Made by a program: the position numbers and the translations under genes. The notes below the pieces were generated by a model. It made no database searches. It saw only the letters and a program-made list of their open reading frames with translations, and was not told the origin of the DNA. A stretch of 64,000 nt of DNA from Acidobacteriota bacterium (GTDB lineage Bacteria; Acidobacteriota; Vicinamibacteria; Vicinamibacterales; Vicinamibacteraceae), in contig JADLFL010000052.1 of assembly GCA_020845575.1 (NCBI GenBank), positions 1 to 64,000 on the forward strand, given 5' to 3'. The stretch's first letter is position 1. Each line of letters begins with the position of its first letter. Below are positions 55,778 through 57,720 of this stretch, in pieces.

Positions 55778-56011
55778 TTGACCCCTTCACCCCGCCCTCC
55801 GGACTACTGGCGGACCGTTGGCGAACTCGGTTCGCTCGGGCTGTCGTTCGTGCTGGCGATCGTCATCGGCACGTGGGCGGGCCTCTGGATCGATCGCACG
55901 TTCACCACGAGCCCATGGGGCATGTTCGCCGGATTCTGCCTGGGCTTTGCCGCCGCCGTGCTCAACGTGGTGCGGATCACGCGCCGGGCGCTCGGCAATG
56001 GCAAGTCCTGA
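55778..56011 (+). CDS. atpZ: AtpZ/AtpI-like small membrane protein
   Basis: 77 residues from TTG 55778, the only start in this frame that suits the promoter position and gives a normal AtpZ: two membrane helices (about 18-36 GLSFVLAIVIGTWAGLWID and 45-66 GMFAGFCLGFAAAVLNVVRI) joined by a short loop with a conserved Asp (WIDRTF). AtpZ proteins are encoded with AtpI at the head of F-ATP synthase clusters and assist assembly or Mg/Ca uptake. The end overlaps atpI by 14 bases. Confidence 0.8.
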   Translation: MTPSPRPPDYWRTVGELGSLGLSFVLAIVIGTWAGLWIDRTFTTSPWGMFAGFCLGFAAAVLNVVRITRRALGNGKS

Positions 56012-56399
56012 CCCCGCCAATCCCATCGGATCGCGCGCCGTGGCGCGGCGACTCGGCAGGGACACGCTCATCGTCCTGGCGCTGAGCGCGCTGGCCGCGT
56101 GGTTGCTGAGCGGCGTCCGGATGGCGGGCGGCGTGGTCGGTGGAGGCGTGCTCTCGGCCCTCAGCGGCGTCGTCCTCTACAGGGCTGTCGTCGCGCTGGG
56201 ACCGCCAGCGGCGGATGAGGCGTACAGGCGTCCGTCATCTGCCAGGGTGGCGGTGGGACTGGTTCTGCGCCACGCGTTGCTGCTCGGAGCGGGCTACGTT
56301 ATCATTGGCCGTTTGCACCTGCACCCGCTGGGGGTGCTGGTGGGCGTCTCCGCCGTGGTCGTTGCCGCAATGATGGAGACCGCCAGGTCCTGGCGCTAG
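55998..56399 (+). CDS. atpI: ATP synthase assembly protein AtpI-like
   Basis: 133 residues from ATG 55998. Four hydrophobic helices (about 20-40, 43-65, 88-105, 108-127) and the position between atpZ and atpB identify it as the poorly conserved AtpI, which helps c-ring assembly. There is little sequence motif to rely on; the call leans on context. The start lies inside atpZ, so translation is coupled. It is followed after 14 bases by atpB. Confidence 0.75.
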   Translation: MASPDPANPIGSRAVARRLGRDTLIVLALSALAAWLLSGVRMAGGVVGGGVLSALSGVVLYRAVVALGPPAADEAYRRPSSARVAVGLVLRHALLLGAGYVIIGRLHLHPLGVLVGVSAVVVAAMMETARSWR

Positions 56400-56413: not shown

Positions 56414-57223
56414 ATGGAACATCACACACTCTGGATCGTCGAGGCCGTCAACCGCCTGCTCGGGCCGTTCGTGGCGTCGCTCCTCGGCAAGACCTACACA
56501 CCCGGCCTGCAGGTGATTCCGGATCATCTCGTCATGTGCGCGTTGATCGTGCTGGCCGTCACGGTGTTCTGCCTGGCCGTGCGGTCCACGTTCAGCGTGG
56601 ACAATCCCGGCCGGCTCCAGATCGTGCTCGAAGACATCGTCGGCTTCCTCGACGGCCTCCTGAAGGAGCACATCGGACCGCAGGGCTCGAAGTTCCTCCC
56701 GCTCGTCGGCTCCATCTTCGTGTTCATCTTCCTGGCCAACGCGATCGGCAAGGTGCCCGGCCTGATGTCGCCGACGGCCAACATCAGCACCACGCTCGGC
56801 TGCGCGCTCACGGTGTGGGTCTACTACCACCTGCAGGGTATCAAGGCGCAGGGCATCGTCGCGTACATCAAGCACTTCATCATTCCGCCGGGCGTGCCGC
56901 TGTTCGTGGCGCCGATCATGGCGCCCATCGAGCTGATCAGCCACGTGTCGCGCGTGATGTCGCTCTCGCTGCGTCTGTTCGGCAACGTGTACGGCGAAGA
57001 GCTCGTCGTGTTGATCATGGCCAGCATCATCCCGTTCCTCGTGCCGCTGCCGATGATGTTCCTCGGCGTGGTCACCGGGTCGCTGCAGGCCTACATCTTC
57101 ACGCTGCTGACGATCATCTATCTGGCTGGCGCGGTCCACGTCGAGCACGGGCATGACGATGCCCATCACGACGATGGGCATGCGCACGGCGACTCGCCTG
57201 CGCACGCGCACGCCGCGGCGTAG
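56414..57223 (+). CDS. atpB: F-type ATP synthase subunit a
   Basis: 269 residues. Forms the proton or sodium half-channels beside the c-ring. The essential Arg lies in MSLSLRLFGNVYGEELV near residue 187, with VPLPMMFLGVVTGSLQAYIF as the last conserved helix. The N-terminus (WIVEAVNRLLGPF) and the membrane helices are normal. The C-terminal tail is unusual: a His/Asp-rich run (HGHDDAHHDDGHAHGDSPAH) that could bind metal. 149 bases separate it from atpE, including an inverted repeat CAGAC...GTCTG that may tune the high atpE level needed. Confidence 0.94.
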   Translation: MEHHTLWIVEAVNRLLGPFVASLLGKTYTPGLQVIPDHLVMCALIVLAVTVFCLAVRSTFSVDNPGRLQIVLEDIVGFLDGLLKEHIGPQGSKFLPLVGSIFVFIFLANAIGKVPGLMSPTANISTTLGCALTVWVYYHLQGIKAQGIVAYIKHFIIPPGVPLFVAPIMAPIELISHVSRVMSLSLRLFGNVYGEELVVLIMASIIPFLVPLPMMFLGVVTGSLQAYIFTLLTIIYLAGAVHVEHGHDDAHHDDGHAHGDSPAHAHAAA

Positions 57224-57372
57224 GCATCGGGTCGGCAGACTTCGGCAACCGTCGGGCCCCGGTCTGCATCGTCGACCCCAGGCGCGCCACAGGCGACGCC
57301 CGCGACCACATGGTCGTGTATCCGTGTAATGCCGACGAAGACGTGATTGAAGGGCCTCGAGGAGGCATGCAC

Positions 57373-57720
57373 ATGATGAAGAAGTTTTCCGTGATTCTCG
57401 CGATGGTGATGGCCGCCGGTTTCGTTTCGCCGGCGTACGCGCAGGAAGTGGCCGGCGGTGGTGTGGCGGCCGGCGTCACGCAGTGGGCCGTGGTGACGGC
57501 CGGATTCGCGCTCGCCATCGCGGCGGCGTTCGGCGCACTGGCGCAGGGCAAGGCCGTGAGCGCGGCCGCCGAAGGCATCGCGCGCAACCCGGGCGCGGCA
57601 GACCAGATCCGCGGCGCGCTGCTGCTCGGCCTCGTGCTGATCGAGTCGCTGGTGATCTACGTGCTGCTCGTCTCGCTGATCATCTTCTTCGTTCGTAACG
57701 GCGCACTCGGCCTGGCGTAA
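57373..57720 (+). CDS. atpE: F-type ATP synthase subunit c, with leader peptide and sodium-type site
   Basis: 115 residues from ATG 57373 (GGAGG 7 bases upstream); ATG 57367 is possible. About 22 residues (KKFSVILAMVMAAGFVSPAYA) form a signal-peptide-like leader ahead of the normal two-helix c subunit (about 80 residues). Helix 1 has ALAQGK and helix 2 has LIESLVIY. The Gln-to-Glu distance is 33, as between Gln32 and Glu65 of the sodium-translocating Ilyobacter c-ring, and Ser66 and Tyr70 match too; Thr67 is Leu. The carboxylate is Glu. GIARNPGA is the polar loop. Confidence 0.94.
   Translation: MMKKFSVILAMVMAAGFVSPAYAQEVAGGGVAAGVTQWAVVTAGFALAIAAAFGALAQGKAVSAAAEGIARNPGAADQIRGALLLGLVLIESLVIYVLLVSLIIFFVRNGALGLA

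What the first reader, a model, noticed from the sequence alone, without database searches (positions are those of the whole stretch)
57373..57720. ATP synthase c subunit with sodium-binding residues and a signal-peptide-like leader
Gln in ALAQGK and Glu in LIESLVIY are 33 residues apart, as Gln32 and Glu65 in Ilyobacter; Ser66 and Tyr70 equivalents are also there, while Thr67 is Leu. Known: Gln, Glu, Ser/Thr and Tyr at these places form the sodium site. Also, about 22 residues of leader precede the two helices. Inference: the enzyme may be sodium-driven, and the leader may guide membrane insertion.
Basis: partly seen in the sequence, partly recalled or inferred. Interest (0 to 1): 0.55.

Follow-up and report, generated by a model that had tools for sequence, protein, structure and literature searches.

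The report
Ordinary proton-type ATP synthase rotor subunit
This gene encodes a normal rotor-ring subunit of the cell's main ATP synthase; its ion site lacks a residue that predicted sodium enzymes carry, so it most likely runs on protons, and it starts with a signal peptide that most sampled relatives of its type also have.

Summary
At 57373-57720 lies atpE (Pfam PF00137, E 1e-13), with Gln58 and Glu91 33 residues apart, Ser92, Leu93, Tyr96 and a 23-residue leader. Gln58-Glu91 align without gaps with Ilyobacter Gln32-Glu65, but score higher against proton-driven cyanobacterial and chloroplast c subunits, so Gln, Glu and Tyr do not mark sodium use. The discriminating position, 67, is Leu. Published rules require Ser/Thr/Gln/Arg there for Na+, and a measured N-type ring with Glu/Glu/Thr/Met/Tyr is H+-specific. 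The same genome holds a second, N-type ATPase whose c subunit does carry the full Na+ set. In all 4 AtpR-bearing genomes of 106 in the order, the AtpR-linked c has polar 67 and the other c is QESLY. So the window enzyme is most likely the proton-driven housekeeping synthase. The leader is real: SD 7 nt upstream of the start, pN/pS 0.44 in frame against about 1 in other frames and upstream, and a leader rule met by 88 of 95 Q-type c subunits sampled in the phylum (72 of 76 in a second set reaching other phyla). It is ordinary. Measured ion specificity and leader cleavage stay open.

The parts
55778..56011 (+). atpZ/atpQ-like small membrane protein (start codon uncertain)
   Evidence: Pfam PF09527 E 1.2e-15 on 55778-56008
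55998..56399 (+). atpI
   Evidence: Pfam PF03899 E 6.5e-9
56414..57223 (+). atpB, subunit a
   Evidence: Pfam PF00119 E 5e-54
57360..57365 (+). Shine-Dalgarno AGGAGG, 7 nt before ATG 57373
   Evidence: sequence read directly; also seen in same-genus relatives
57373..57720 (+). atpE, subunit c precursor (115 aa)
   Evidence: Pfam PF00137 E 1e-13; AlphaFold model three helices 2-28, 33-71, 73-108, mean pLDDT 85.2
57373..57441 (+). signal-peptide-like leader, predicted cleavage AYA|QE after residue 23 (cleavage site inferred)
   Evidence: pattern in relatives; pN/pS test
57532..57534 (+). Gly54 = position 28 (Pro in Ilyobacter)
   Evidence: alignment
57544..57546 (+). Gln58 = Gln32
   Evidence: alignment to 1yce 32-76
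57643..57645 (+). Glu91 = Glu65, ion-binding carboxylate
   Evidence: alignment to 1yce; invariant in 54-sequence alignment A3
57646..57651 (+). Ser92 = 66 and Leu93 = 67 (Leu where sodium rings have a polar residue)
   Evidence: rule in PMC2359735
57658..57660 (+). Tyr96 = Tyr70

Best explanation
atpE of the housekeeping F-type ATP synthase of a Vicinamibacterales acidobacterium (same family as a MAG titled Luteitalea sp.). It is made as a precursor. A Sec-type signal peptide inserts N-in and is cut at AYA|QE, which leaves the mature N-terminus in the periplasm, the topology of a c hairpin (inferred). The mature two-helix hairpins form a ring whose Glu91 carries protons, with Gln58, Ser92 and Tyr96 tuning its hydrogen bonds, as in 'mixed' proton rings (inferred from sequence). 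Sodium export in this cell, if done by a rotary enzyme, would fall to the separate N-type ATPase (inferred). Shown: family, residues, reading frame, selection on the leader, second operon. Inferred: ion, cleavage, export pathway.
For: Position 67 is Leu: predicted Na+ c subunits have Ser/Thr/Gln/Arg there and predicted H+ ones Leu/Ile/Val (PMC2359735 section 6); a site with a missing Na+ residue is scored H+ (PMC11738941 section 5). The measured H+-specific B. pseudomallei N-ring has Glu30, Glu61, Thr62, Met63, Tyr66, i.e. polar 66 and non-polar 67 (PMC5376962). Best solved relatives are proton rings: chloroplast 22vl (its printed alignment reads Q...ESL..Y) 50.1 bits, Spirulina 2wie 48.9, against 1yce 27.8; Foldseek 45% identity to 2wie, 30% to 1yce. 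Leu67 in 94 of 110 sampled rows with Gln/Glu/Asp at 32. In 4 of 4 AtpR-bearing genomes the AtpR-linked c has Ser/Thr67 and the other c is QESLY. No NQR/RNF (PF03116) match in the genome. Leader: pN/pS 0.44 in frame, 0.99 and 0.97 in wrong frames, 1.05 upstream; rule met at the auto-chosen start in 88 of 95 Q-type rows and 72 of 76 loci of the second set.
Against: Ser at 66 is retained, which Spirulina and three of the four other chloroplast alignments printed do not show as the same set; it is a direct Na+ ligand in I. tartaricus, so weak Na+ binding is not excluded. No ion was measured here. Cleavage and mature N-terminus are not shown. Only one Na+-pump family (PF03116) was searched, in a 95.84% complete genome, so other sodium pumps were not tested. 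The structural model is a monomer; the Gln-Glu distance was not measured.
Confidence: 0.88

Rival explanations
1. The window enzyme is sodium-driven: Gln58, Glu91, Ser92 and Tyr96 suffice for Na+ and Leu93 is tolerated.
For: Four of the five side-chain positions match Ilyobacter; Ser66 is a direct ligand in Na+ rings (PMC3692424).
Against: Leu at 67 removes the side chain that holds the coordinating water (PMC3692424; PMC2359735); the same motif class dominates the phylum sample; a separate N-type enzyme has the complete set; a measured ring with Met at 67 is H+-specific.
Confidence: 0.06
2. The ring is proton-coupled in normal conditions but binds Na+ at high pH or high Na+, because Gln, Ser and Tyr remain.
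For: The retained ligands; Na+-type rings can move H+ without Na+ (PMC2359735).
Against: The same paper states that H+ enzymes cannot translocate Na+; whether the host lives at high Na+ was not tested.
Confidence: 0.06
3. The leader is a mis-called start and the protein begins further down.
For: No cleavage data exist; a later start without leader is possible in principle.
Against: SD AGGAGG at 7 nt from ATG 57373; in-frame purifying selection in the leader only in this frame; the same pattern in 88 of 95 Q-type rows.
Confidence: 0.03

Closest known systems
Proton-driven c rings of cyanobacteria and chloroplasts (Spirulina 2wie, spinach 6tqj, chloroplast 22vl)
   Same: Gln, Glu, aliphatic Leu at 67, Tyr; 22vl also has Ser at 66 in the printed alignment; best sequence and Foldseek matches
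   Different: Window protein has Gly at position 28 where they have Pro, and carries a leader; Spirulina has Ala at 66
Sodium c rings of Ilyobacter tartaricus (1yce) and Fusobacterium nucleatum (3zk1)
   Same: Gln (Glu in Fusobacterium), Glu, Ser, Tyr at 32, 65, 66, 70; no gap between Gln and Glu against 1yce
   Different: Leu instead of Thr at 67, Gly instead of Pro at 28; 30% and 32% identity
N-type ATPase c subunit, here the second operon of the same genome (contig C40:161631-161909)
   Same: Same Pfam family, two-helix hairpin
   Different: Pro28, Glu32, Glu65, Thr66, Ser67, Tyr70, no leader, next to AtpR and AtpQ
Aquifex aeolicus c subunit with an N-terminal signal peptide (recalled: Zhang et al., FEBS J 2013; nothing of it seen here)
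   Same: A c subunit made with a signal peptide (recalled)
   Different: Not compared here

Membership tests
F-type ATP synthase subunit c | Match to the c-subunit family over its cut-off | tested here: met
   PF00137 51.7 bits, cut-off 24
F-type ATP synthase subunit c | Two-helix hairpin with polar loop and carboxylate in helix 2 | tested here: met
   ARNP loop and Glu91; model helices 33-71 and 73-108
F-type ATP synthase subunit c | Partner subunits in the genome | tested here: met
   atpI and atpB adjacent, atpZ; two b-type, delta, alpha, gamma and most of beta on contig C27; end of beta and a likely epsilon at the start of C51 (epsilon read from sequence, not scanned)
Sodium-specific c subunit (Mulkidjanian 2008 set) | Gln/Glu at 32, Glu at 65, Ser/Thr at 66 | tested here: met
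   Gln58, Glu91, Ser92
Sodium-specific c subunit (Mulkidjanian 2008 set) | Polar residue (Ser, Thr, Gln, Arg) at 67 | tested here: not met
   Leu93
Sodium-specific c subunit (Mulkidjanian 2008 set) | Na+ protects against carbodiimide labelling | not testable with these tools
   bench assay
N-type ATPase | Operon beta-epsilon-Q-R-a-c-(b delta)-alpha-gamma with AtpR | tested here: not met
   Window locus is atpZ-I-B-E then an EamA transporter; the N-type operon lies on C40
Sec signal peptide | Positive n-region, hydrophobic core, small residues at -3 and -1 | tested here: met
   KK, core up to 2.88 mean Kyte-Doolittle over 9 residues, A-Y-A before QE
Sec signal peptide | Cleaved by signal peptidase I | not testable with these tools
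   needs N-terminal sequencing or intact mass

The most novel reading that the evidence does not exclude
A c ring that keeps Gln, Ser and Tyr but has Leu at 67 and Gly at 28 is a dual-ion ring: proton-coupled at neutral pH and able to bind Na+ when protons are scarce, in a cell that also keeps a dedicated sodium N-ATPase.
Probability: 0.06. Interest if true: 0.5.

Novelty: new member of a known kind. Interest (0 to 1): 0.12.

Why it matters
It corrects a likely mis-reading: a Gln-Glu-Ser-Tyr set alone does not make a sodium ATP synthase. The genome offers a within-cell contrast between a Leu67 F-type ring and a Ser67 N-type ring, usable to test what position 67 does. The leader survey suggests that a signal peptide on subunit c is the rule in one large branch of c subunits.

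Tried and rejected
Sodium coupling of the window enzyme: weighed and rejected on position 67, relatives and the second operon. Pro28 as a sodium mark: rejected, because Pro is also found in proton rings (Pro25 in Spirulina, PMC2914638 passages); inside the phylum sample Pro28 and Ser/Thr67 go together (6 of 7 Pro28 rows, 1 of 97 others, which left out 6 rows with Tyr at 67), but rows are related, so the Fisher p value there is not a clean test. A laxer leader rule (any Met/Val/Leu residue as start) was rejected as uninformative: it also fires in 3 of 8 N-like and 6 of 7 V-like rows. Gln-Glu distance in the AlphaFold model: not measured, since the coordinates were not among the files held in the script box. 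VIA-align rows mixed c rings with unrelated helical hairpins (top row 6swg, Z 8.9), so they were given no weight. Promoter scan gave 0 hits, terminator scan 1 at chance level. A paper on a c-subunit signal peptide in Aquifex is recalled; five searches did not bring it up.

Full report
What is there. The ORF 57373-57720 encodes a 115-residue c subunit (PF00137 E 1e-13). It follows an atpZ-like gene (PF09527), atpI (PF03899) and atpB (PF00119) and is followed by an EamA transporter, not by F1 genes. The rest of the housekeeping enzyme is elsewhere in the 78-contig genome: two b-type subunits, delta, alpha, gamma and most of beta on contig C27, with the end of beta and a likely epsilon at the start of contig C51 (epsilon read from the sequence). 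A split between c and b is described for acidobacteria in PMC4154653 (passages read). The host: its family includes G370, whose contig of 105,103 bases is titled Luteitalea sp..

The residues. A 45-residue piece that starts at Gln58 aligns over its full length with 1yce 32-76 and with Spirulina 2wie 29-73. Position 28 is Gly54.

Which ion. Mulkidjanian et al. 2008 (PMC2359735, section 6 read) state that predicted Na+ enzymes have Ser, Thr, Gln or Arg at the Thr67 position and that predicted H+ enzymes have Leu, Ile or Val. ProAD (PMC11738941, section 5 read) calls a site H+ if one residue of the set is missing. In the F. nucleatum ring Thr67 holds the water that coordinates Na+ (PMC3692424, passages). 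The N-type ring of B. pseudomallei, with Glu30, Glu61, Thr62, Met63 and Tyr66, was measured as H+-specific against an earlier prediction (PMC5376962, parts of the results read). PMC2914638 (passages) calls proton rings with some Na+ ligands 'mix'. The window protein belongs there. Its best solved relatives by sequence are chloroplast and cyanobacterial rings (50.1 to 45.2 bits) against 29.2 for 3zk1 and 27.8 for 1yce. The printed alignment of 22vl, a chloroplast c, shows Gln, Glu, Ser, Leu and Tyr at the five places. Against this reading: Ser66 is kept, and no ion was measured.

The second enzyme. Contig C40 carries beta, epsilon, Q, R, a, c, fused b-delta, alpha and gamma in the N-type order (PF12966 AtpR E 6.9e-16 and PF09527; PF00231; beta, b-delta and alpha; epsilon not scanned). 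Its c subunit has Pro28, Glu32, Glu65, Thr66, Ser67 and Tyr70 and no leader. AtpR was found in 4 of 106 genomes of the order searched: G000, G183, G345 and G351. In 4 of 4 the neighbouring c has Ser or Thr at 67 (EETSY, EESTY, QESTY, EESTY) and the other c is QESLY. None of the 4 other genomes of the genus has AtpR and each has one c match, so the N-type operon is probably a horizontal gain (inference). ProAD gives H+-F with Na+-N as the commonest F plus N pair, 164 genera (section 7 read). PF03116 (NQR/RNF) had no match in this genome; other sodium pumps were not searched. The N-type ring's own ion is likewise only predicted.

Survey. From (297 genomes of the phylum, 285 with a match; 106 of the order, 101 with a match) I took the automatic loci and 119 stretches of my choice: nearly all order matches without a locus (two partial ones left out), and about 40 phylum genomes picked from the listed matches for spread. 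My profile found a c-type ORF in 175 loci; I dropped 5 that repeat G000, which leaves 170 rows. Some loci with Pfam matches were missed by my profile (L021, L024, L031, L032, L033, L174). Of 110 rows with Gln, Glu or Asp at 32, 94 have Leu at 67, 6 Thr, 1 Ser, 2 Val, 1 Ile and 6 Tyr. The Gln-Ser-Leu class of the window is the commonest, 83 of 170.

The leader. SD AGGAGG lies 7 nt before ATG 57373. In five same-genus genes, the window's included, the leader has pS 0.385 and pN 0.168 (ratio 0.44); the same bases read in the two wrong frames give 0.99 and 0.97 and the 60 bases upstream 1.05. The helices give 0.12, so the leader is constrained in kind more than in letter, as signal peptides are. 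A simple rule (positive start, hydrophobic core, small residues at -3 and -1) is met at the automatically chosen start in 88 of 95 Q-type rows without Pro28, 12 of 60 rows with Ile or Val at 32, 0 of 8 N-like and 0 of 7 V-like rows. For the 7 Q-type misses a leader exists at another start by the laxer rule. In 76 loci fetched by a pattern scan that favours this type, 72 meet the rule, including records titled Deltaproteobacteria, Myxococcales, Mailhella and Planctomycetota. SignalP was not on hand.

Verdict. A true observation of an ordinary thing. The sodium inference is not supported; the leader is real and widespread. Cleavage and measured ion stay open.

Noticed in passing
G000 contig C40:158216-165125 (L003:5217-12126): An N-type ATPase operon with AtpR and a c subunit that has the full predicted sodium set; AtpR absent from the four other genomes of the genus searched.
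   Followed up: partly
L014:3981-4646 (contig C27, minus strand): One b-type subunit of the housekeeping synthase also begins with a signal-peptide-like leader (its PF00430 match starts at residue 70).
   Followed up: no
phylum sample: There are two main kinds of F-type c: Gln-type with leader and no b gene found within about 640 nt downstream (0 of 90 testable rows), and Ile/Val-Glu-Gly type, mostly leaderless, with b just downstream in 47 of 59 testable rows. It looks like two operon lineages.
   Followed up: partly
L053 (G309:C105) and L044 (G241:C5): L053 c has Glu-Glu-Ser-Thr-Phe though its genome had no AtpR match; L044 has Pro28 with Leu67, an N-like c of predicted proton type.
   Followed up: no
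G000 contigs C27:1, C51:1, C15:1, C58:1: The beta gene is broken by a contig end (C27 and C51); short PF00006 stretches also sit at the ends of C15 and C58 and were not explained.
   Followed up: no
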